Shown: positions 50,634 to 64,000 of the stretch, piece after piece | Position numbering within the stretch: the stretch's first letter is position 1 | How the letters are laid out: each line of letters opens with the position of its first letter | Position numbers and translations under genes: made by a program | Origin: Niastella vici | GTDB lineage: Bacteria; Bacteroidota; Bacteroidia; Chitinophagales; Chitinophagaceae | Direction of reading: 5' to 3' | Length of the DNA stretch: 64,000 bases | NCBI RefSeq assembly: GCF_002077945.1 | Contig: NZ_LVYD01000060.1 | Span: 1 to 64,000 of the forward strand | The notes under the pieces: model-generated | Told to the model about the DNA's origin: nothing | Seen by the model: only the letters and a program-made list of their open reading frames with translations | Database searches by the model: none

Positions 50634-50930
50634 TTATCCTCCTATTAAAACGGTTGGGTTGCCAGCTACTATTACCCCGCCATGTGCGGTAAGATCGCCC
50701 TGCCTGGCTGCGGGCTTGCCACCGATGAGTACGGTTGTGGAGCCCTGCACAATGATATCGGGCGGGCCCGTGCATACGAGCATGTCGCCGACAACCGCCG
50801 CTGGCATACCGCCGATGAGTACGGTAGCCACGCCGGGACCCGTAACCGGCCCGCCCACATGGGGCACGCCGCCGGGGTTCACGAGGGGGCAGGTGTGCAG
50901 GTCTGTTATTCTGGCTGCTGATGGCATCAA
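50634..50930 (-). CDS. PAAR-domain spike tip (Afp10-like)
   Basis: A 98-residue PAAR protein (PF05488-like). It sharpens the spike and can anchor effectors. Repeated V-L-I-G-G-x-P-A-A turns, D-L-x-x-x-G and the metal-binding His/Cys residues (H-T-C and H-G-G) are present; no extra C-terminal effector domain is attached. Its start overlaps the stop of the VgrG-like gene by four bases. Confidence 0.92.
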   Translation of the reverse strand: MMPSAARITDLHTCPLVNPGGVPHVGGPVTGPGVATVLIGGMPAAVVGDMLVCTGPPDIIVQGSTTVLIGGKPAARQGDLTAHGGVIVAGNPTVLIGG

Positions 50931-52702
50931 TTTATTTTTATGAGTGATCCTTTTATTTCTGCAATACCCGAGGCCGTTAGCCCCACCATGGCGCCATCCA
51001 TACTTACCGATCCGTCGGCTTTTATGCCCAATGTGGCGCCGCCGATAGAAAGGGACGCGCCTGCCTTCAGCGTAAGGTTAACCCCTGCTTCTATATCTAT
51101 ATTTTGCGGACTGCTTAGTTTTACGCCTGAGCTGTTCAAAGAAAATTTGTTGTCGTTCTGGTCTTTGATCTCTATTGTTTTTGCTGCTTCATCCAATTTT
51201 ATACTGTTGCCGGCAGGCGTATCGATGGTAATGGTTTTTGTGCCGTCATTAAAGTGAATGCGCATTTTACTTCGGGTGAATATGCCCTTTTCATCGTTCT
51301 GGTCCGAGGCGCTTAACGGCGCTTTTTTCGCACTGCTGTTGAGCATGCCCAACACCACCGCATCGTTGGGGTCGTCATTGATAAACCCAACGATCACTTC
51401 GTCGTCCTGTTCGGGTCTGAAAAAAGTGCCTCTTTCAGAACCGGCGTCTAAACAGGCTACCCGCGACCAAATGCCATTGGCCTTGTTATCGATCGTTGGA
51501 ATTTTTACCAGTATCCTGTCTTCTCCATCGGGGTCAGTTGCCAGGTGCACTACTTTACCGATCTGCAAACCGCGGATGCCACCCACCAAACCGGCTGCCG
51601 GTTCATCATTGATGTCTTTATAGATCTTTGCATAGGCTTCGGGGTCGAGGCCAAACTGAATATTGGTTTCCCAGGAGCCATTGCCGATATCATGTTTCAC
51701 CGCGGTAACGAAGACATTCCCATTATACCGGTCGCCCACACCATCGAGCTTGAGCATATCGCCGGGTTTAATGCCTGAAAACCCGGTAACCTTTACGCGG
51801 CCGCGGATCTTTGCCAGCCGGCTTCGCATCATTACGCCATCTGCCCACAACTTTAACTCCTGCTCGGTCTTATAACCACTGTGGTGTAATTCAAATTCGT
51901 TGAGGTCAATGGTATCGGCCAGTTGAGCGCCGGCCAGGTTGCCGGGTTGGTTAATGTCTTTTGCTTCTTCCGTATCGGCAGTGAATAATTTCTGGTTCGT
52001 ATAATCCCAGGCAGTGGCCTTTACCTGCTTCCACTGGTTGCGGGCATCCATCTCGGCTTCAAACTCCATGATTGAAGTTCCGTAGCTGGCCTGCAGTACG
52101 GGTTCTGCACCGGTTGCCGGTGTAAAGGTTTTGATCTTCCCATCTTCAACCGTTACCAGCGTGCCACTGCTTTCGGCTCGCAGCAGCAGAAAATCCCAGT
52201 CGGTAATATGATGCTGCACCAGCTCTTTGTGTGTGATGTTGGTTTCTTTTGCTTCTACTGCCAAACCATTATAGGCTTTCACCAGTTCTTCGATGGCCTG
52301 GCTGTCTTTTACTTTTTCAAAATATTTACTCTTTCTTCCCATGGTCATCTTCACCGCTTCATCCCGGCATTCAACCAGCAACTGCGAGTTGCCATTGGGT
52401 TTTACCTGGATGCCCTGTTTGGTGATAATGCCTTTGAACACCTGTTTGTTATTACCGTCGTACCCCAGTTTGATCACAATTTTTTTGCCGGGAATGAATT
52501 CATTGCCATTGCTGAGCTCGAAAGTTTTTGCGGCGGCATCGCCATCCCTCAGGGTAAACCGTACCAACGGGATGCGGTTTATTTCCCTGATCGCCGTGAG
52601 CATGGTCAACTGGTACGAAGCATTCATGGCCTGCCCATCTATGAGGATATCATATGTGGACACATCATGTTTTGAAGGATTGGGAATGATGAGCTCCTGC
52701 AT
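50927..52702 (-). CDS. VgrG-like spike protein (Afp8-like)
   Basis: A 591-residue central spike. The N-terminal part (about 1-350) is a gpD-like hub domain. A gpV/gp5-type OB fold (about 375-460) contains G-E-D-R-I-L-V-K-I-P and D-E-V-I-V-G-F-I-N-D-D-P. The C-terminus (about 480-591) is a repetitive beta-helix needle with S-I-K-L-D, S-V-S-M-D-G and L-T-L-K-A-G-A-S-L-S-I-G. The PAAR tip gene follows with a four-base overlap, and the LysM gene precedes with its stop codon sharing one base with this start. Confidence 0.9.
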   Translation of the reverse strand: MQELIIPNPSKHDVSTYDILIDGQAMNASYQLTMLTAIREINRIPLVRFTLRDGDAAAKTFELSNGNEFIPGKKIVIKLGYDGNNKQVFKGIITKQGIQVKPNGNSQLLVECRDEAVKMTMGRKSKYFEKVKDSQAIEELVKAYNGLAVEAKETNITHKELVQHHITDWDFLLLRAESSGTLVTVEDGKIKTFTPATGAEPVLQASYGTSIMEFEAEMDARNQWKQVKATAWDYTNQKLFTADTEEAKDINQPGNLAGAQLADTIDLNEFELHHSGYKTEQELKLWADGVMMRSRLAKIRGRVKVTGFSGIKPGDMLKLDGVGDRYNGNVFVTAVKHDIGNGSWETNIQFGLDPEAYAKIYKDINDEPAAGLVGGIRGLQIGKVVHLATDPDGEDRILVKIPTIDNKANGIWSRVACLDAGSERGTFFRPEQDDEVIVGFINDDPNDAVVLGMLNSSAKKAPLSASDQNDEKGIFTRSKMRIHFNDGTKTITIDTPAGNSIKLDEAAKTIEIKDQNDNKFSLNSSGVKLSSPQNIDIEAGVNLTLKAGASLSIGGATLGIKADGSVSMDGAMVGLTASGIAEIKGSLIKIN

Positions 52703-53412
52703 CAGTGTTCGTTTTTGTCGAATGGTGGAAAATTCAATTGAATGGCCGGTTTGATCTTTCTGATACTGGTGAGTTGATTCACTTTTGCCACCTGCATCAC
52801 ATATTTGGGATCGTTGTAGATACTGTAGGTCAGCCGGTCGAGCCGGTCGCCCTGCACTACGATCCTTGAATGGGTGAGGTCGGGTGACGATGCCCTTGAT
52901 TCGGCCAGCAATTGTTCGCGCGACTTATGTGCAATAAAGGTAGCGGTGACCTTTACCCGCAGGGGCGAACCATCCGGTTCAAACAACGTGTAATTGAGGT
53001 CGAGGTTGCCCAATACACATTTGAAATTCATATCAGAGCCCCACATGACTATTAAGAACCGCGGGCGATGGATCTTGCCATCGAAATTATACACGCAATT
53101 TTTAAGGTCCTCTATCTGGTCATGCACCGGCTTTTTTTTGTAATCACTGTTTTCGCCCCCATAGCCTTCCATAGTGCGGGTGCCATCGAGAATGAACTCG
53201 AGCCGCAATTGCTCGGGTTCAGTACCCTTGTACTTGGCTTCGGTGCCGGCATTGCCATGCCCGCCCGAGGTATCAGCATTCACTTTCAGTGTTTGCATGA
53301 ATGACTCAGGATTGATGGGCGTACTGAAAGCCTTTGACGGATCTTCGTTCTTGAAATCGCGCTGTTCAAATGAACGGATCACCAGTTTCTCCAGTTTTTT
53401 TCTATCGCTCAT
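52702..53412 (-). CDS. LysM-containing hub/adaptor protein (Afp7-like)
   Basis: A 236-residue protein ending in a LysM-type domain (about 175-225, V-Q-G-D-R-L-D-R-L-T-Y-S-I-Y-N-D-P). In eCIS and T4-like particles (gp53) this protein links tube initiator and baseplate rather than binding peptidoglycan. The N-terminal part has no separate domain I can name. It overlaps the DUF5908 gene by 11 bases and the VgrG-like gene by one. Confidence 0.85.
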   Translation of the reverse strand: MSDRKKLEKLVIRSFEQRDFKNEDPSKAFSTPINPESFMQTLKVNADTSGGHGNAGTEAKYKGTEPEQLRLEFILDGTRTMEGYGGENSDYKKKPVHDQIEDLKNCVYNFDGKIHRPRFLIVMWGSDMNFKCVLGNLDLNYTLFEPDGSPLRVKVTATFIAHKSREQLLAESRASSPDLTHSRIVVQGDRLDRLTYSIYNDPKYVMQVAKVNQLTSIRKIKPAIQLNFPPFDKNEH

Positions 53413-53581
53413 TTTTTTCTTTTAAAATGGCCAGTACTTTGTCAACACATTCCTTGATGAGGTCTTCGCCCGGTGCGGCGTTGGAGGAAGCTCCCTTGCC
53501 CGGGGCATTTGTTCCGGTGCCGGGGGCCTGAGCGCCATCAACGGTTGCCTTGATCACCAGTTCTCTTATTTCAATTGGCAT
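53402..53581 (-). CDS. DUF5908-family small eCIS protein
   Basis: A 59-residue protein starting M-P-I-E-I-R-E-L-V-I-K-A-T-V, the hallmark of the DUF5908 family found between tube and LysM genes in Bacteroidota eCIS operons. The middle is Gly/Ala/Pro-rich and low-complexity, and the end is a short charged helix (C-V-D-K-V-L-A-I-L-K-E-K). The reading frame is closed by TAG at 53402-53404, and the gene overlaps the next start by 11 bases. Its role in the particle is not known. Confidence 0.8.
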   Translation of the reverse strand: MPIEIRELVIKATVDGAQAPGTGTNAPGKGASSNAAPGEDLIKECVDKVLAILKEKNER

Positions 53582-53590
53582 TACTGACAG

Positions 53591-54091
53591 TTATTTGGTG
53601 TTGAAAGACTTTAACTCGGAAAATATCAGGCGGTTGTAATTGAGTTCCAGGGTTTCTATCAGCACTTCACTTCTTTCGGCATTCATTTCAGCGATCTTCC
53701 AGCTTCTTGGCCATACATTGGTTACCGTCCAGCTCATCAATGGCTGGTGATCTTCGCCCAACAGATCGATAATAACGGTATCAATCACCTGGAAATTCTC
53801 GTTTCCGGTAGCCGCATCAAATGGTTCGCCTTCAAAGGTTTTTTTCAGCCAGTTGGCAACAGGGGAACTGAGGGGGCCTATGAGGCCTCTTTTCAGTACC
53901 AGGGGACCAAACCTTCTTCGGGTGGGGATCACGTGTTCGAACCGGTTTTCCCCACCTTCCTTGATGGTTTCAATATCAAGCGTTGAGTCGAGGCCGGCCA
54001 CCGATTGAAATCTTACATCAACCGAACCCCTGTCGCCCGCTGAAAAATGTACCGCGAAATGAAAACCTGTTGTTTGATAGAATGTATCCAT
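53591..54091 (-). CDS. eCIS inner tube protein, second type (Afp5-like)
   Basis: A 166-residue protein of the gp19/Hcp-like tail-tube family. It has F-Q-S-V-A-G-L-D (as in tube proteins V-S-G-L), R-R-R-F-G-P-L-V-L-K-R-G and L-M-S-W-T-V-T-N-V-W-P. It is a diverged paralogue of the neighbouring tube gene and probably forms the tube initiator ring near the baseplate, as Afp5 does. Four bases separate it from that gene. Confidence 0.88.
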   Translation of the reverse strand: MDTFYQTTGFHFAVHFSAGDRGSVDVRFQSVAGLDSTLDIETIKEGGENRFEHVIPTRRRFGPLVLKRGLIGPLSSPVANWLKKTFEGEPFDAATGNENFQVIDTVIIDLLGEDHQPLMSWTVTNVWPRSWKIAEMNAERSEVLIETLELNYNRLIFSELKSFNTK

Positions 54092-54095
54092 TCAT

Positions 54096-54560
54096 TTACT
54101 TTTTCGCTTCTACAATCGTAAGCCCTTCATGCGCCAGTTCCATGCTTTCGATAGCGATCTCGCTGGCATCTGCCTTCAGATCGGATGAAGTGACCTTGGT
54201 GGGCCATGCTTTGGCAACCGACCAGCTTATAACCGGTTTATGCTCTTCATCGAGCAGGCGGATGGTTACATCCCTTCTGAATTTTTCTTTTCCTTCCTGG
54301 AACATCATGGTCTTTTTCCATTGCTCAAAGAATTCGAAATCGCCGGCAAAAGTGCCGCGTTTGAGGGTGATGTTCTTGTACTCGGTTAAACCGGGCTGTT
54401 TGGTTTTATTGAATTGCGGGCTGCTGCCTTCGCGGTATTCAATCACCTTTGTTTCAAAATCCAATCCGCTTACTTCGGTGAAGCCTATCCGGGTTCCGCC
54501 CCAATCCAGTTGAAAATGGAACTTTGGGAGCGGGTATGTTTTTTTTGGATCGTCTGCCAT
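54096..54560 (-). CDS. eCIS inner tube protein (Afp1-like)
   Basis: A 154-residue tail-tube protein with F-T-E-V-S-G-L-D, N-I-T-L-K-R-G and I-S-W-S-V-A-K-A-W-P-T-K. It forms the hollow shaft of stacked hexamers through which cargo passes. The position just after the sheath gene and the family length (about 150) support it as the main tube subunit. Confidence 0.9.
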   Translation of the reverse strand: MADDPKKTYPLPKFHFQLDWGGTRIGFTEVSGLDFETKVIEYREGSSPQFNKTKQPGLTEYKNITLKRGTFAGDFEFFEQWKKTMMFQEGKEKFRRDVTIRLLDEEHKPVISWSVAKAWPTKVTSSDLKADASEIAIESMELAHEGLTIVEAKK

Positions 54561-54589
54561 GAGTTGTAATTTTTATTTGTTGAATGAGC

Positions 54590-55978
54590 TTATTTTTCGC
54601 TGAGCATTTTGTGCATGAAGGTGAGCACGATGAATTCGGCGGGCCGTACCACGGCCATGCCTATTTCTACGATCATTCTGCCTTCCCAGATATCGAGCTC
54701 GGTCATGGTGCTGCCCAGTCCAATGTGAACGTAGAAGGCTTCCGCTGTAGAAGCGCCCATGAGGGCCCCGTTCTTCCATTGGGTAGTGAGGTAATTTTCG
54801 ATCATCGATTTTACCCGCGTCCAGGTGTTCTGGTCATTGGGTTCAAACACGAATTGTTCGGTAGCGTTCTTGACAGATTCTTCTACCATGTTGAAGAAGC
54901 GGCGAACCGGAACATAACGCCATTCATTATCATTACCGGCCAGTGTTCTGGCGCCCCAGATAATAGCCGGGCCGCGGCCGGGGAATGAACGGATAACATC
55001 GATTGATTTGCCCGATACTTCATCAACGTTGAGGCCGGCCTGTTGTTTACCGGTAACGATGAGCTGGGGGCGGGTGGCGCGACTGATATTTACATTGGCC
55101 GGCGCTTTCCATACACCGCGTAAATTGTCGGTAGCGGCGTATTGACCCACCACGGCTGGCGCAGCTGGTAACAACATCTCCAGCCCATTGATGGCGGCTT
55201 TGGCCATATTGTAATACTTTAAATTAGCTGCTTTCAATGCATCGAGCGTGGCAGAACCGCCCACGCCGGTAACTGTTACTAAGGTTTCGTCGGAGTAATC
55301 GTATGTAAGCAGGGTATATAGCCTGGGGTAATAGGCCGCTCCATATTTCAACTTCAGCACATCGTTGGAAAGGGTGCTGCGAAGATCGGCCGCGGCGGTG
55401 GCGCCACTTGGGTATACATCCATTACGGTGAACCTGTCCTGCAATTCAACACACTGGTCAAGGGCTTTGTCAAAAATGCCATAGTATTGAGCAACGGCCG
55501 ATCCGCCGGTAATATTAACGGCTTCGGGAACCACCAACAGGGTTACTTCATTGATAGTGCCTGCATCATCGATGCCATGTTCGAGGTCGGTGTTAGTGAT
55601 CGCTCCCGGGTAAATGCCTACTGAAATAATATAGCATGGCCCGCCGCCATTGGCAAAGAATAATTGCATGGAGTAGTACAACAGATGTACCGAGGCTGTG
55701 GCCGGGTTAATAGTGGCAGTCACCGCTACATCTGATGTTCCGGCGCCGGTAAAGGCCGCCACCAAACCTGTTTCCGGATCGGCTTTGCCAAAATATCTTT
55801 CATATTCCAGCATGGAGGTGATCCTGGTTGGCTTTCTGATTAGATCACCTGCAATTTTCAGGTCTGCCTTTTGGGTATACCCTATAAAGGCAGGAATGGC
55901 TGTTTCTACTGACGCGATGGAGGGTGGAAGCTTGGGTATTTCTTGAATATAGACACCCGGTGTTTTAAAATCTAGCAT
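54590..55978 (-). CDS. eCIS contractile sheath protein
   Basis: A 462-residue phage-tail-sheath-family protein. It starts M-L-D-F-K-T-P-G-V-Y-I-Q-E-I, the strand exchanged between subunits. C-terminal sheath motifs include G-P-A-I-I-W-G-A-R-T-L, R-F-F-N-M-V-E-E-S and the region near the C-terminus, V-V-R-P-A-E-F-I-V. It is the only sheath gene here, whereas Afp and PVC carry three, so one subunit probably forms the whole sheath. It follows the unknown 436-residue gene by 32 bases and precedes the tube gene by 29. Confidence 0.93.
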   Translation of the reverse strand: MLDFKTPGVYIQEIPKLPPSIASVETAIPAFIGYTQKADLKIAGDLIRKPTRITSMLEYERYFGKADPETGLVAAFTGAGTSDVAVTATINPATASVHLLYYSMQLFFANGGGPCYIISVGIYPGAITNTDLEHGIDDAGTINEVTLLVVPEAVNITGGSAVAQYYGIFDKALDQCVELQDRFTVMDVYPSGATAAADLRSTLSNDVLKLKYGAAYYPRLYTLLTYDYSDETLVTVTGVGGSATLDALKAANLKYYNMAKAAINGLEMLLPAAPAVVGQYAATDNLRGVWKAPANVNISRATRPQLIVTGKQQAGLNVDEVSGKSIDVIRSFPGRGPAIIWGARTLAGNDNEWRYVPVRRFFNMVEESVKNATEQFVFEPNDQNTWTRVKSMIENYLTTQWKNGALMGASTAEAFYVHIGLGSTMTELDIWEGRMIVEIGMAVVRPAEFIVLTFMHKMLSEK

Positions 55979-56010
55979 TTTTATTCAGTTGACTGTGAAT
56001 GGATGTTGTT

Positions 56011-57321
56011 TTATACCAGTGGAAATAAATTTGATTGTGGCACCTGCATGTTCAGGGTGATCTTGTTCCCATCTCTTCGTACCTCCATATCGGGGTCAGG
56101 ATTCGGAAGCAGCTGGAAACTGTTATCGGGCTTTTTCAATTTCACAGGTGTGTAACTCATAGGCACCGGATTCTTGGATACAAGTACGCCGCTGTTGTCA
56201 TTTAGCAGGTCGGTGGTTGCCGGCGTCAATTTGAATTTCTTTTGCCGGTTATTGGAATATTGCCAGTAGGCCGACTTGCTCTTCATCCACAGTTCGAAAA
56301 TGGGGGCGGGTTGTTTTATACCGCCCGGCGATATGCGGGTAAAAAGATAGCCGCTGGCGTCGAGCAGGTCAAAGCTGGCGTTTGCCGGTTTTATTACCAG
56401 GTCAATTACGCCAATGCAGGAAGCAGGCTCTATGGCATCGTGGGCAAAAAGAAGGTTGTTGAACGTTTTTGAATAGCCGCCGCTCCCTGTTACTTCCAGT
56501 TTGTATAACTGATCGGGCGTTACTGCCTGGTAGCTGATGGCTTTTACGATCTCTTTATTGGTATGGAAATCGACGGTGACATTTTGCATGGGTTTGGGCG
56601 AGGCGAGATCGAGCTGTTGCACTATCGTACTGGTTGAATCTTTTAAAATGAAACTGGCATTGGTGATGTTGTCAAGCTCATTGAACGTATACACAAATGT
56701 CAGCGGCAACAGCAGGGCGTCGTTTGTATTAATATATTGTGTGCCTGGCAGCGTGAGCCAGGGATCAATTGCCCCATTGTTTAAAAATGATTTGGCTATG
56801 CCGGCATGTAAGGCGAGCTCACTTTGCACATATGATTGGGTGTTAACAAATGCAGGGATTGGGGCCGTTAAAAAAGGGAATGTTCTGGCCGCAGTAAGGT
56901 CGTTGCTGCTGAAATACCATAATGGTTGTAATGGCCCCGGGCTGATCTCTGCGGAATACCGGCTGATATTTTTTTTCGGCCGCACCATTATGCGCAGGCA
57001 AAGCTCATTGGGCAGGTTTACAAAAGGCCGGTAAACAATAGTGCCATCCATCAGTTTTTCTTTTCTGCATTGTACGGCCAGTTTGAAACCGGCGTAGGCG
57101 GGTAACACCCGCACATAATGGTCGGGGAAAGTATTGTTGGTGGAATGGGCAACAAATTCAAGGTCTTCGTGAATGGAAGGCAGGTCTTTCACAAACCGGT
57201 CGAACAGGAAATTCATCCGGTCCTGCTGAGCGGCTTTTTCAAAAATGGTTTCACCCTTTTCCAGCGTGCAATAATATTCATGCAGCCATTTTACCTCACA
57301 TAATATTTTATATATGGTCAT
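56011..57321 (-). CDS. Conserved-position eCIS protein of unknown function
   Basis: A 436-residue protein between the DUF4255 gene and the sheath gene, with gaps of four and 32 bases, so it belongs to the operon. I do not recognise a domain. There is no signal peptide or membrane segment. The sequence is rich in beta-strand and aromatic residues with segments such as F-V-N-L-P-N-E-L-C-L-R-I-M-V-R-P-K and F-V-Y-T-F-N-E-L-D, compatible with Ig-like folds. As no separate tail-fibre gene (Afp13) is seen in the operon, this protein is one candidate for a surface or receptor-related part; a cap or assembly factor is equally possible. Confidence 0.6.
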   Translation of the reverse strand: MTIYKILCEVKWLHEYYCTLEKGETIFEKAAQQDRMNFLFDRFVKDLPSIHEDLEFVAHSTNNTFPDHYVRVLPAYAGFKLAVQCRKEKLMDGTIVYRPFVNLPNELCLRIMVRPKKNISRYSAEISPGPLQPLWYFSSNDLTAARTFPFLTAPIPAFVNTQSYVQSELALHAGIAKSFLNNGAIDPWLTLPGTQYINTNDALLLPLTFVYTFNELDNITNASFILKDSTSTIVQQLDLASPKPMQNVTVDFHTNKEIVKAISYQAVTPDQLYKLEVTGSGGYSKTFNNLLFAHDAIEPASCIGVIDLVIKPANASFDLLDASGYLFTRISPGGIKQPAPIFELWMKSKSAYWQYSNNRQKKFKLTPATTDLLNDNSGVLVSKNPVPMSYTPVKLKKPDNSFQLLPNPDPDMEVRRDGNKITLNMQVPQSNLFPLV

Positions 57322-57325
57322 GCTA

Positions 57326-57952
57326 TTATGGGTGCTTTTTTATAACGTTGGTGGTTACTTCTTCTATCAGCGGTACTTCTCTTCTTATACTTCTTTCTGT
57401 AATGCTCACCATACGTACCTTATACATAACGAATGGGATCTGGCGGCCGCCCAGTGAACCCCAGAGATGGTTGATTTGCTCGAAAGTGAGGGTATACATT
57501 TCGAGGTTCAGCTTCAGCGATGCGATATCGGGGTTTGAAAAATCGCTCAATTCGGGCGGAAGCGGTACTGATGAAGTGGCAGGCGTAAAAATATTTTTCC
57601 CCTGAAAAAATTCTATCACCAGGGAAAGGCGGTGTAATGATTGTACATAACCGTTATTGGGTGGCACCCCGCCGGGAAAATTGGCGGTTATAAGTACATA
57701 GAGGTTCAGATAAACAGGCCGGTTCTCATACCGCGCTTTGCCATCGGGCCATTTGCTGAATGTTTGTCCGTTTTTAAAACTGCTTTCTTCTTCAATGTTA
57801 ACGAGCGAGATAATAATATTATCCTGCAGGTCGGCGCCATGCTCTGTTTCGAAAAGACCAATATTTTCGATGATCACATCGGCCGGATCGCCTTGTGTTA
57901 CCATATAGGCCGTCAATTCCTCGCGCAAAAGGATCAAGGCATTTGCTATCAT
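57326..57952 (-). CDS. DUF4255 (Pvc16/Afp16-like) tail terminator
   Basis: A 208-residue DUF4255 family protein (PF14065), first gene of the operon. In Afp/PVC the equivalent Afp16/Pvc16 caps the tube and sheath and stops their growth. It shows the family start M-I-A-N-A-L-I-L-L-R-E-E-L, the middle S-L-V-N-I-E-E-E, Y-L-N-L-Y-V-L-I-T-A and V-E-F-F-Q-G-K. The ATG at 57952 is chosen because the upstream in-frame 16 codons are Asn/His-rich and unlike the family. The operon promoter must lie in the 57953-58438 spacer. Confidence 0.88.
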   Translation of the reverse strand: MIANALILLREELTAYMVTQGDPADVIIENIGLFETEHGADLQDNIIISLVNIEEESSFKNGQTFSKWPDGKARYENRPVYLNLYVLITANFPGGVPPNNGYVQSLHRLSLVIEFFQGKNIFTPATSSVPLPPELSDFSNPDIASLKLNLEMYTLTFEQINHLWGSLGGRQIPFVMYKVRMVSITERSIRREVPLIEEVTTNVIKKHP

Positions 57953-58438
57953 ATTATTATTTCGGTTTGGGCAAAAGTTGTACGATGCGTGGTTGTACAC
58001 ACATGCACACTTTTAGCATTACCATAAAAAGATTTAAATCAGCAAAAGGACAGCAAAATCTGCTTCACAATCCAGGACAATAGGATATCTGATGCGATAG
58101 TATCAGCAAGAATAATTCTCAAAAGGGTTACAGAAGCTACTAATTCAGGAAACTTTTCTCGGGATTATGTTCAGGGGTTTATAATATATTAAAAGTACAA
58201 TGATCTTACATCTTCCCAATACCACTAAGTGGTAAAATTTTTCCACATATGATGTGAATTGACGATCATGCCTGTTCGATTGCCAATGGAGTGGTTCCGG
58301 TAAACCCGTTTTTCCATTCGTTGAATAAATGATGTCGTTCGTTGAAACGGCTTTTTAGAATAATTTATATAAGTGCAATTATTTATATCAGGTAGCGTTT
58401 AGATAAGTTGGTATGATAAAAATGCCAGTACATTATCT
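57953..58438. other. Divergent spacer upstream of the eCIS operon
   Basis: About 490 AT-rich bases between the eCIS operon (minus) and the lipoprotein esterase (plus). A perfect palindrome TACCACT-A-AGTGGTA at 58220-58234 is a likely regulator site. A direct repeat of ATTTATAT occurs near 58365-58390. No coding stretch and no exact TAnnTTTG promoter were found on either strand. Confidence 0.4.
58220..58234. promoter_or_regulatory. Perfect 7-1-7 palindrome, candidate operator
   Basis: TACCACT and AGTGGTA are exact inverse complements separated by one A. The site is about 270 bases upstream of the first eCIS gene and 205 bases upstream of the divergent esterase. Its shape resembles two-heptamer sites of LuxR/NarL-type regulators. 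The binding protein is unknown. Confidence 0.35.
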
Positions 58439-61231: not shown

Positions 61232-62689
61232 ATGCCAATTCAAAAAATTCTATCTGACGCTGCAATTTCAGCCGCGCAGGGTGTTTCCAAAATAGTCTTA
61301 GGTAAATTACTTCAATCAGTCAAGGGCGAAAAAAAAGGAACTATTATTCCATATCGTTCCGAAGGAAATGAGAGCATTGTTTGCTTTGTTCATGGCTTTT
61401 CTGGTGACCCTGAATCCACATTTAAACCTATTCCTGAATTCATTATTGCAGAAAGCGAACTGAATGGTTGGGATGTAATAAGCATCGGTTACTCCACTGA
61501 CTTAATGCCAAATATTGGAAAAGGCATTTGGGCAGCAACTCCTGACATTACAAAAATTGCTAGTTATCTGCAAACAAATCTTGAAATACTGTTTGAACAT
61601 TATAACAGGGTAGCTCTAATCGGGCATAGCATGGGAGGATTAGTCATTCAAAGAACAATTCTAAATAGAGACGATATACACAAGATTTCTCATGTTCTTT
61701 TTTATGGTACGCCAAGCGGCGGTTTAAAAAAAGCTTGGCTCTTGAGATGGTTTAAAAACCAGATTAGTGATATGGACTATGAAGGCGAATTCATTAAAAA
61801 ACTTCGCAATGAATGGAATAATAGGTTTAGTCATAAATACCCATTCAAATTCGCAACTGTTGCAGGCGAGTTGGACGAATTTGTTCCCACAAATTCAAGC
61901 TTAGACCCCTTTACAAAAGATTATCACTGCATTACAGCTGGCAACCATATCACAATGGTGAAACCTGAGAGTAATATGGACACTTCATTTCAGGTTATTA
62001 AAAAAATGTTGGGTATTGGCAGCGGAATATCGTATTTAATTGGTAATGATAAGGACTTGAATAACCTAATAGCAAGGTATTATGAAGAAGCTGATATACT
62101 TGGTAAGAAGCTACCTGATTTGGATGCGAAAGGATTTAAGAAATACATTTTTGCTTTAGAAGGAATTGGCAAAATTGATGACGCAATTAAGATGTTGGAA
62201 GAATCTGAAATCATAAAATTCAATACAGATTTTATGGGAATTTTAGGTGGAAGATTTAAAAGAAAATATCTTGTTGAAGAAACAACGGCATTTTTAGAAA
62301 AAGCTATTTGTTGGTATGATAAAGCGTTGCAGTTATCGTTACGATCAAATAACAGTTCTCAAATATATTATCATGCAATAAATCTTGCTTTTCTCTTTTT
62401 AATGCTTGATGAAACAGATTTAACTAAAACTAAAGAAATGGCTCAATTGGCTTTGAAGCATTGCCAAATTGCTAAGGGAGGTCAATATTGGGAAGACGCA
62501 ACAATTGCCGAGGCATATCTGTATCTGAATGCGTTTGAACAAAGCAAAATCTTTTATACTTCAGCAATAAATAAATGTAATCAAAGTATAAGGGAAACAA
62601 GCTCAATGCTTATTAATGCTGTTTATGCCTGTAATAGTCTTAATAGGCCTGACTGGAAAAAAGAGCTTGAAAATGTTTTTAGCATCTAA
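61232..62689 (+). CDS. Alpha/beta hydrolase fused to TPR-S (DUF4071)-like domain
   Basis: A 485-residue cytoplasmic protein. Residues about 40-265 form a lipase-like PGAP1/DUF676-type alpha/beta hydrolase: oxyanion segment F-V-H-G-F-S-G-D-P, nucleophile Ser133 in I-G-H-S-M-G-G, Asp215 in G-E-L-D-E-F and His239 in A-G-N-H-I-T. Residues about 280-485 are helical and carry G-R-F-K-R-K-Y, W-Y-D-K-A-L, Y-Y-H-A-I-N-L-A and Y-W-E-D-A-T-I-A-E-A. These match the TPR-S (TRAFs-binding, DUF4071) pattern of nucleotide-linked immune sensors. A sensor-effector in which ligand binding releases the hydrolase is inferred. There is no signal peptide. Start has ACAGGA upstream. TIR and ATPase genes follow in the same AT-rich operon. 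Confidence 0.75.
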   Translation: MPIQKILSDAAISAAQGVSKIVLGKLLQSVKGEKKGTIIPYRSEGNESIVCFVHGFSGDPESTFKPIPEFIIAESELNGWDVISIGYSTDLMPNIGKGIWAATPDITKIASYLQTNLEILFEHYNRVALIGHSMGGLVIQRTILNRDDIHKISHVLFYGTPSGGLKKAWLLRWFKNQISDMDYEGEFIKKLRNEWNNRFSHKYPFKFATVAGELDEFVPTNSSLDPFTKDYHCITAGNHITMVKPESNMDTSFQVIKKMLGIGSGISYLIGNDKDLNNLIARYYEEADILGKKLPDLDAKGFKKYIFALEGIGKIDDAIKMLEESEIIKFNTDFMGILGGRFKRKYLVEETTAFLEKAICWYDKALQLSLRSNNSSQIYYHAINLAFLFLMLDETDLTKTKEMAQLALKHCQIAKGGQYWEDATIAEAYLYLNAFEQSKIFYTSAINKCNQSIRETSSMLINAVYACNSLNRPDWKKELENVFSI

Positions 62690-62706
62690 TTAAATTTAGT
62701 TTTTGA

Positions 62707-63321
62707 ATGGCATATAAATACGACATATTCATTAGTTACAGACGGGATAACTTAACTCGTAAATGGATTGAAACACATTTTGTTCCGTTACTCGAACACC
62801 ATATTAATCTTGAGCTCGGAAGAATACCTGTTATCTATATAGATACTCTGCTTGAAAATGGAACGACTTGGCCTATTGCATTAGGGAATGCATTAGGAGC
62901 ATCAAGAACAATAATTCCTCTATGGACAAAAACATTTCTTAACAGTGTATGGTGCTCGTGTGAAATCGGTCACATGCTTGAAAGAGAAAGAAAGTTTGGC
63001 TTTAGAACTATTCAAAATCCAGGCGGATTAATTTTCCCAACAATCATTCATGATGGTGAAACTATGCCAGTTAATCTTACTACAATTCAAAAAATTGAAA
63101 TTCAAGAATGTTACAATGTAAGAATGTCTATTGATAGTCCTAAAGCAGAGGTTCTTGACGACAGATTAAGACCTTTAGGAAAAGATATTGCAGATGCCAT
63201 AAACAATGCACCAGTGTGGCAACAAGATTGGCAAATTGTAGCAGTAAATAGTTTTGTTCAACAATTTCATATCGAAGAACAGCCCTCTCAAAGTCAACCT
63301 CCAAAATTTTCCAACCCATGA
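62707..63321 (+). CDS. TIR-domain protein
   Basis: A 204-residue protein that is mostly one TIR domain. The first strand Y-D-I-F-I-S-Y-R-R (residues 5-13), the W-P-I-A-L-G-N-A-L-G-A-S-R segment and the catalytic motif S-V-W-C-S-C-E with Glu86 are intact, as in TIR proteins that cleave NAD+ or make cyclic ADP-ribose-type signals. A C-terminal helical part (about 150-204) ends in a Gln/Ser/Pro-rich tail. It follows the hydrolase gene after 17 bases and overlaps the next gene by four (ATGA), so the products are probably made together. NADase or cyclase function is inferred from the family. Confidence 0.88.
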   Translation: MAYKYDIFISYRRDNLTRKWIETHFVPLLEHHINLELGRIPVIYIDTLLENGTTWPIALGNALGASRTIIPLWTKTFLNSVWCSCEIGHMLERERKFGFRTIQNPGGLIFPTIIHDGETMPVNLTTIQKIEIQECYNVRMSIDSPKAEVLDDRLRPLGKDIADAINNAPVWQQDWQIVAVNSFVQQFHIEEQPSQSQPPKFSNP

Positions 63322-64000
63322 GTAGTATAATTACATTTTATTCTTACAAAGGAGGTGTTGGGAGAACCATGGCCTTAGCCAACATTGCTTATGAACTTTC
63401 AAAAAGAAATTCTAAAGTTTTGATTGTTGATTGGGATTTGGAAGCCCCTGGTATTGAAAGGTATTTTAGTGGATTCAAAATAGAAAATACATCAGAAGGG
63501 CTTCTGCAACTTTTATTATCCTATAAGAATGATGCCAAGCCCGACTACAGAAATTTTCTTTGGCAAATTGAAACAGGAACAAGCTTTCCAATTTCCTTGC
63601 TTCATAGCGGTAGAGATAAAGACCCTGCATCATATTCTGCATTACTTCAAAATTTTGATTGGGGCGATTTCTTTACCAAGGAAAATGGTGGCAATCATAT
63701 AGAGAATTTACGGAAGCAATGGCAAAATGATTTTGATTTTGTCTTGATTGATAGTAGAACTGGCTTAAGTGATTCAAGTGGAATTTGCACCATCATGATG
63801 CCTGATATTTTGATCCCAATGTTTACAGCAAACTATCAAAGTCTCTTTGGCATTCGTGACATTGTTAAGTATATTCAAAATGCAAGGCAAAAACTTGAGG
63901 TTGACAGAATGGCTTTGACGGTTTTGCCGATACCTTCAAGATTTGGAACCCGTGTTGAGTTTAAAGAATCTCAAGAATGGCTTGAAAGAATTTCCGATAT
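63318..64000 (+). CDS. ParA/MinD-like ATPase with KGGVGRT motif, partial
   Basis: The N-terminal 227 residues of a protein that continues past the window end. It is a SIMIBI-class P-loop ATPase, with the deviant Walker motif S-Y-K-G-G-V-G-R-T at residues 9-17 (Arg instead of the usual Lys) and L-I-V-D-W-D-L-E-A-P-G at about 41-51. Further strands read V-L-I-D-S-R-T-G-L-S-D and L-T-V-L-P-I-P-S-R-F. This KGGVGR variant is known from NTPase-centred conflict systems, where it often occurs with TIR-like and TPR partners, rather than from plasmid partition. Overlaps the TIR gene by four bases. C-terminal domains (possibly TPR or effector parts) cannot be seen. Confidence 0.85.
   Translation, partial: MSSIITFYSYKGGVGRTMALANIAYELSKRNSKVLIVDWDLEAPGIERYFSGFKIENTSEGLLQLLLSYKNDAKPDYRNFLWQIETGTSFPISLLHSGRDKDPASYSALLQNFDWGDFFTKENGGNHIENLRKQWQNDFDFVLIDSRTGLSDSSGICTIMMPDILIPMFTANYQSLFGIRDIVKYIQNARQKLEVDRMALTVLPIPSRFGTRVEFKESQEWLERISD

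What the first reader, a model, noticed from the sequence alone, without database searches (positions are those of the whole stretch)
61232..64000. Candidate conflict system: hydrolase-TPR-S + TIR + KGGVGR ATPase
Seen: three tightly packed genes (17-base gap, then a 4-base overlap) encoding an alpha/beta hydrolase with a DUF4071-like C-terminus, a TIR domain with catalytic Glu, and a deviant P-loop ATPase. Known: TIR domains in bacterial defence make NAD-derived signals or deplete NAD+, TPR-S domains are linked to nucleotide-centred immune systems, and KGGVGR ATPases occur in NTPase conflict systems. Inferred: the TIR enzyme makes a signal that the TPR-S part senses, releasing the fused hydrolase against membrane lipids or another target, with the ATPase as regulator or sensor. 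I know of no described system with exactly this trio.
Basis: partly seen in the sequence, partly recalled or inferred. Interest (0 to 1): 0.85.

Follow-up and report, generated by a model that had tools for sequence, protein, structure and literature searches.

The report
Acquired TIR, hydrolase and ATPase cassette
Three packed genes on foreign-looking DNA pair an enzyme that probably cuts NAD+ with a sensor-fused, lipase-like enzyme and an unusual ATPase; they look like a bacterial self-sacrifice defence made from known parts in a combination not met elsewhere in this study.

Summary
The three genes are real and correctly placed. Gene 1 (61232-62689) is an alpha/beta hydrolase fused to a TPR-S sensor (Pfam E 5.9e-14, over its cut-off). 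Gene 2 (62707-63321) is a TIR with the WCxxE glutamate. Gene 3 (63318-65276, running past the window) is a 652-aa KGGVGR ATPase with a second TIR lacking that glutamate and an unnamed C-terminal module also seen on a DUF4062 protein. GC is 0.346 against 0.481 (sd 0.016) nearby, so the cassette is probably acquired.

Two pairings recur: 9 of 10 hydrolase-TPR-S genes lie beside a TIR or MAP3K_TRAF_bd-TPR-S gene (control 2 of 219 ORFs), and a small TIR lies directly upstream of a KGGVGR gene in 8 of 45 loci read, in Bacteroidota and two rhizobial plasmids, with swapped KGGVGR tails.

Best reading: the KGGVGR protein licenses the TIR, whose NAD-derived product is sensed by TPR-S and frees the hydrolase. 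Gene neighbourhood supports the TIR/TPR-S link; the signal, the ATPase's role and antiphage function are inferred. New variant of a known kind.

The parts
61232..62689 (+). Gene 1: alpha/beta hydrolase (GHSMGG, S133; D215; H239) with C-terminal TPR-S sensor (residues 293-388)
62690..62706 (+). 17-base gap between genes 1 and 2
62707..63321 (+). Gene 2: small TIR protein, WCSCE with E86 at the catalytic place
63318..64000 (+). Gene 3, start: KGGVGR-variant ATPase (overlaps gene 2 by 4 bases). Runs past the window to 65276 on the same contig (L002:3319-5277), 652 aa, with a second TIR (residues 330-459, no glutamate at the WCxxE place) and an unnamed C-terminal module (about residues 507-652)

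Best explanation
A horizontally acquired conflict operon, most likely antiphage and abortive. The KGGVGR protein of gene 3 is the sensor or licensing switch. When triggered, it lets the TIR of gene 2 cleave NAD+, perhaps by assembling it on its own glutamate-less TIR. The ADP-ribose-type product (or a cyclic form) is bound by the TPR-S part of gene 1, which frees the fused hydrolase to attack the cell's own membrane lipids or another ester and stops the infected cell. Shown here: gene content, domains, conserved residues, foreign base composition, recurrent TIR/TPR-S neighbourhood, recurrent TIR/KGGVGR pair. Inferred: what gene 3 senses, that it controls gene 2, the identity of the signal, its binding by TPR-S, the lipid target, and defence as the purpose.
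For: Domains over curated cut-offs. Triad and TPR-S residues invariant in 10 of 10 relatives. TIR or MAP3K_TRAF_bd-TPR-S gene within two ORFs on the same strand in 9 of 10 hydrolase-TPR-S loci, control 2 of 219; these neighbours were confirmed with Pfam. Small TIR directly upstream of KGGVGR in 8 of 45 loci, in Bacteroidota and two rhizobial plasmids, WCxxE in 8 of 8. KGGVGR tails are swapped between relatives. Nearest solved hydrolases by sequence are a putative lipase (E 9e-10), BlEst2 and PlaB phospholipase, and one relative locus (G027) carries a patatin. Foreign GC. KGGVGR proteins match the PADLOC candidate PDC-M28B (3e-21).
Against: The trio was found once only. TIR-KGGVGR pairs without gene 1 are the rule (7 of 8), and hydrolase-TPR-S genes without KGGVGR are the rule (9 of 10). 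Small TIRs are upstream of KGGVGR in only 8 of 45 loci, and in 0 of the 17 read from family f18. No direct evidence of antiphage function; PADLOC gives gene 1 only a weak LmuA match (6.4e-4) and gene 2 nothing significant (ThsB 0.059). No usable structure model. The HMMs were trained partly on the loci they count.
Confidence: 0.5

Rival explanations
1. Two systems side by side. Genes 2 and 3 are a self-contained pair that acts by NAD+ depletion (TIR as executioner, KGGVGR protein as sensor); gene 1 is a separately acquired effector that answers to whatever NAD-derived signal is made nearby, or is a passenger.
For: The TIR-KGGVGR pair stands without gene 1 in 7 of 8 loci, and gene 1's relatives stand without KGGVGR in 9 of 10. 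Portal-triggered NADase depletion without a second effector is reported for a DUF4062 protein (PMC13174449).
Against: All three genes share one low-GC block with a 17-base gap and a 4-base overlap. Hydrolase-TPR-S genes keep TIR or TIR-like neighbours, so a link of gene 1 to gene 2 is the expected arrangement.
Confidence: 0.3
2. The cassette is a stress or development regulator rather than a defence: an FxsC-like TIR and a KGGVGR ATPase used in host signalling.
For: Gene 2 has a sub-cut-off match to FxsC_Nterm (30 of 130 bits; the G176 relative 52 bits). A two-component-type regulator (named by eye) lies downstream on the other strand.
Against: The FxsC cut-off is not reached; no NCBIfam match of genes 1-3 passes its cut-off other than AAA_KGGVGR. 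Low GC, and no gene-1 or gene-3 match in the 5 congeners sampled, argue against a core regulatory role.
Confidence: 0.1
3. Gene 1 belongs with the contractile injection system 3 kb upstream, as a lipase cargo, and genes 2 and 3 are bystanders.
For: VgrG-like and tail-tube-like genes lie at 50927-54091. In one relative (G361, L061) tail-sheath-like genes, named by eye, follow the hydrolase pair.
Against: A GC step and two divergent hydrolase-like genes separate gene 1 from that cluster. No such genes were noticed at the other relatives' loci read, and TPR-S with a TIR neighbour recurs instead.
Confidence: 0.03

Closest known systems
TPR-S / NAD+-derived-signal conflict systems (Burroughs and Aravind 2020, J Bacteriol; recalled, not held; Pfam PF20308 TPR-S)
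   Same: TPR-S fused to an effector, with a TIR or TIR-like gene beside it
   Different: The partner here includes a KGGVGR ATPase carrying a second TIR, seen beside no other hydrolase-TPR-S gene in this study
Thoeris
   Same: A TIR NADase as presumed signal maker commanding a second effector
   Different: No ThsA-type effector; gene 2 is not matched by ThsB models (0.059); effector is hydrolase-TPR-S
Swarozyc / DUF4062 NADases (PMC13174449, preprint 2026)
   Same: Gene 3's C-terminal module is 40% identical over 139 aa to the tail of a DUF4062 protein in G009
   Different: No DUF4062 domain in the cassette; not tested whether that module is the portal-binding auxiliary domain
PADLOC candidate PDC-M28 (KGGVGR-type protein)
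   Same: Gene 3 matches PDC-M28B at 3e-21
   Different: A predicted candidate only; its partner gene was not compared here
FxsC (FxSxx-COOH systems)
   Same: Distant TIR similarity of gene 2
   Different: 30 bits against a cut-off of 130; no radical-SAM gene noticed among the neighbours (by eye)

Membership tests
TPR-S effector systems | TPR-S domain over the curated cut-off | tested here: met
   52.9 bits of 27.6
TPR-S effector systems | NAD-processing (TIR or TIR-like) gene next door | tested here: met
   Gene 2; 9 of 10 relatives, control 2 of 219
TPR-S effector systems | TPR-S binds an NAD-derived signal and switches the effector | not testable with these tools
   Needs binding and activity assays
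TIR NADases | TIR fold family with the catalytic glutamate | tested here: met
   Gene 2: TIR_2 34.6 of 28 bits, WCSCE. Gene 3's TIR lacks it
KGGVGR ATPases (NF047398) | Score over the curated cut-off | tested here: met
   150-152 bits of 90
Thoeris | ThsB-type TIR with ThsA-type partner | tested here: not met
   PADLOC: gene 2 ThsB 0.059; gene 3's second TIR ThsB 0.0072; no ThsA match
CBASS | CD-NTase gene | tested here: not met
   None of the three proteins matches one in PADLOC; the neighbours were read by eye only
FxSxx-COOH system (FxsC) | FxsC model over its cut-off | tested here: not met
   30 bits of 130
Swarozyc | DUF4062 domain | tested here: not met
   No DUF4062 match in genes 1-3
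Antiphage defence system | Protects cells from phage | not testable with these tools
   Bench test proposed

The most novel reading that the evidence does not exclude
KGGVGR ATPases are the shared sensor-switch of a large, undescribed class of immune operons. In one branch the switch drives a small NADase TIR, here perhaps through a catalytically dead TIR of its own, while the rest is swapped: a small hydrophobic protein beside the pair in two genomes, a hydrolase-TPR-S here, and lysozyme-like, carrier-protein, TPR or FGE-sulfatase tails elsewhere. This cassette would be a case in which such a switch commands a lipase through a diffusible signal.
Probability: 0.3. Interest if true: 0.75.

Novelty: new variant of a known kind. 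Interest (0 to 1): 0.5.

Why it matters
If right, it gives a compact three-gene test of the prediction (recalled) that TPR-S reads NAD-derived signals, for which the listings showed me no experiment, and a first handle on KGGVGR ATPases, a word found in one paper of the held library, a mushroom-lectin review.

Tried and rejected
Conserved three-gene system: rejected; the trio was seen once.

DUF676 as the hydrolase's family: below cut-off; PGAP1 passes barely.

Thoeris, FxsC and CBASS labels: not met.

Mobile cargo: no relative of gene 1 in viral contigs with the two patterns used or in plasmids at 1e-10; none of gene 3 in phages at 1e-10. Ten KGGVGR relatives were found in viral contigs.

More carriers of the C-terminal module: only itself in 295 class genomes; the G009 protein had come from the family search.

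Empty-site test: inconclusive; each flank gene has a match at 1e-60 in 2 of 10 genus genomes, own included, and no other genome has both.

Structure: both single-sequence models are poor (mean pLDDT 35 and 40), so no fold search was made.

Promoter scans: nothing above chance. Gene 1 N-terminus as a membrane helix: its best hydrophobic moment, 0.47, is above the 95th percentile (0.42) but below the maximum (0.51) of the rest of the protein, so not decided.

A P-x-[L/F/M] motif within the last 11 residues of the 8 small TIRs was noticed after the fact and could not be tested on new pairs.

Genome-contig scan with a single sequence gave one ParA-like hit and used that cap.

Full report
What is there. 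Gene 1 is 485 aa: an alpha/beta hydrolase with GHSMGG (S133) and a C-terminal TPR-S domain at residues 293-388, 52.9 bits against a cut-off of 27.6; PGAP1 just passes (24.6 of 24.3) and DUF676 does not. Gene 2 is a 204-aa TIR (34.6 of 28 bits). Gene 3 starts inside the last 4 bases of gene 2. The contig continues, and gene 3 proves to be 652 aa: KGGVGR ATPase (150 of 90 bits), a TIR at 330-459 (48.4 of 28), and a C-terminal stretch with no Pfam match (157 residues scanned). The genes on both sides are on the other strand, so the operon is these three genes.

Acquired DNA. The cassette's GC is 0.346; in 570 overlapping stretches of the same length in window 1-61000 the mean is 0.481, sd 0.016, minimum 0.437, and the drop begins and ends about where the three genes do. 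An empty-site comparison in the genus was inconclusive.

Gene 1 and its relatives. In 294 family genomes, 9 have a match: own, two close relatives (G086 66%, G027 51%) and 6 weak hydrolase matches. In 395 phylum genomes a 3-row profile finds 10 at 1e-15: in eight, own included, the match spans hydrolase and TPR-S; in G513 and G488 it covers only the hydrolase half. In the ten hydrolase-TPR-S proteins, S133, D215 and H239 are invariant, as are G336, G340, R341, K343, R344, Y380 and N384. Neighbours (named with Pfam): TIR-WD40 (G086); TIR-TPR-S and patatin (G027); a caspase fused to the hydrolase-TPR-S, with a TIR next (G406); TIR plus nSTAND1 on one side and MAP3K_TRAF_bd-TPR-S on the other (G387); TIR and MAP3K_TRAF_bd-TPR-S (G459); MAP3K_TRAF_bd-TPR-S (G361, G656, G326). 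By HMMs built in the box, 9 of 10 have such a gene within two ORFs on the same strand; the tenth (G539) lies about 140 bases from its contig end. Control: 2 of 219 ORFs that lie more than four ORFs from a focal gene, in the same 36 regions and window 1-58000. Those HMMs were trained on some of the same sequences, which is why Pfam was used as a second witness.

Gene 2-gene 3 pair. I read 45 KGGVGR loci for a small TIR gene directly upstream. Bacteroidota outside family f18: 6 of 9 (G000, G176, G097, G126, G410, G540; not G292, G501, G713). In one search a further 86 genomes had only weak matches (best E 1.3e-6), taken for ParA/MinD relatives and not read. Family f18: 0 of 17 loci read, of 31 listed; one of the 17 has a TIR ORF three ORFs downstream. 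Plasmids: 2 of 9 read, of 11 records found (Sinorhizobium chiapasense, whose KGGVGR protein also carries a TIR, and Rhizobium beringeri). Viral contigs: 0 of 10, one of them without upstream sequence and two alike. In all, 8 of 45. Of the eight small TIRs seven pass the TIR_2 cut-off and G410's does not (24.4 of 28); all eight keep WCxxE. The ATPase part has 38 invariant positions in eight proteins, while the tails differ: TIR plus module (here), phosphopantetheine-carrier (G097), GH25 lysozyme-like (G410), TPR (G126), FGE-sulfatase (R. beringeri), TIR (S. chiapasense). G097 and G410 also share a small hydrophobic-looking protein beside the pair (50% over 125 aa, no Pfam match). So the pair is a core with changing riders; here the rider is hydrolase-TPR-S, and no other hydrolase-TPR-S gene was found beside a KGGVGR gene.

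Second TIR and C-terminal module. At the WCxxE place gene 3's TIR reads SSFLNIV, so it is probably non-catalytic; the S. chiapasense one is unclear at that column. The module is 40% identical over 139 aa to the tail of a 355-aa DUF4062 protein in G009. A 2026 preprint (PMC13174449; abstract, passages and part 1 of 2 of Results read) reports DUF4062 as a TIR-like NADase whose C-terminal auxiliary domain binds a phage portal. Whether our module is that domain was not tested; the link supports a sensing or adaptor role by analogy only.

How it most likely works. Trigger at gene 3 (inferred); licensing of the gene 2 NADase (inferred; the pseudo-TIR as scaffold is a guess); an NAD-derived signal (passages of PMC7159879 and PMC8195603 state that TIR domains make ADP-ribose signals in such systems); sensing by TPR-S (predicted by Burroughs and Aravind 2020, recalled; paper not held); attack on lipids (inferred from the nearest solved relatives, a putative lipase, BlEst2 and PlaB phospholipase, and a patatin in G027). 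I give this 0.5. The chief rival, 0.3, is a separate TIR-KGGVGR system with a signal-answering hydrolase beside it.

Literature. Searches: TPR-S or KGGVGR (30 of 65 papers listed), conflict-system terms, TIR + anti-phage + TPR-S (none), Thoeris with lipase or TPR, TIR with MinD/ParA-like ATPase, Thoeris types III/IV, DUF4071 or PDC-M28, TIR with phospholipase, KGGVGR alone (one mushroom-lectin review). The listings showed no description of this gene set; passages of PMC9503650 were also seen. Most subscription papers are not held, so prior description cannot be excluded.

Verdict. Observation confirmed; interpretation partly supported; a new variant of a known kind, worth a bench test.

Noticed in passing
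window 50927-58000 (-): A contractile-injection-type cluster: a VgrG-like protein (232.7 bits of 121.8) and a tail-tube-like protein (TIGR02241, 92.7 of 62.4) passed their cut-offs; a sheath-like gene was named by eye. It ends about 3 kb before the cassette.
   Followed up: partly
L061 10425-14999: In G361, tail-sheath- and tube-like genes (named by eye) follow directly on the hydrolase-TPR-S and MAP3K_TRAF_bd-TPR-S pair.
   Followed up: no
window 63295-63321 and the small TIRs of L016, L046, L048, L105, L106, L118, L124: P-x-[L/F/M] lies within the last 11 residues of all 8 small TIRs, possibly a docking tail; seen after the fact.
   Followed up: partly
L046 11662-12120 and L106 5527-6048: A small hydrophobic-looking protein, 50% identical over 125 aa, sits beside the TIR-KGGVGR pair in G097 and G410 with no Pfam match.
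   Followed up: partly
L106 6053-8101, L046 9209-10957, L124 4965-7250: KGGVGR ATPases fused to a GH25 lysozyme-like domain, a phosphopantetheine-carrier domain and an FGE-sulfatase domain.
   Followed up: partly
L116 1206-6806: A KGGVGR gene with two small genes before it and two asparaginase-like genes after it (by eye).
   Followed up: no
L015 8835-12821: Patatin, TIR-TPR-S and hydrolase-TPR-S in one row in G027: two lipase-like enzymes with one TIR.
   Followed up: partly
L120, L121, L122 and L138, upstream of the KGGVGR gene: An MqsA-like antitoxin or similar small gene abuts the KGGVGR gene instead of a TIR (annotation; L138 by eye).
   Followed up: no
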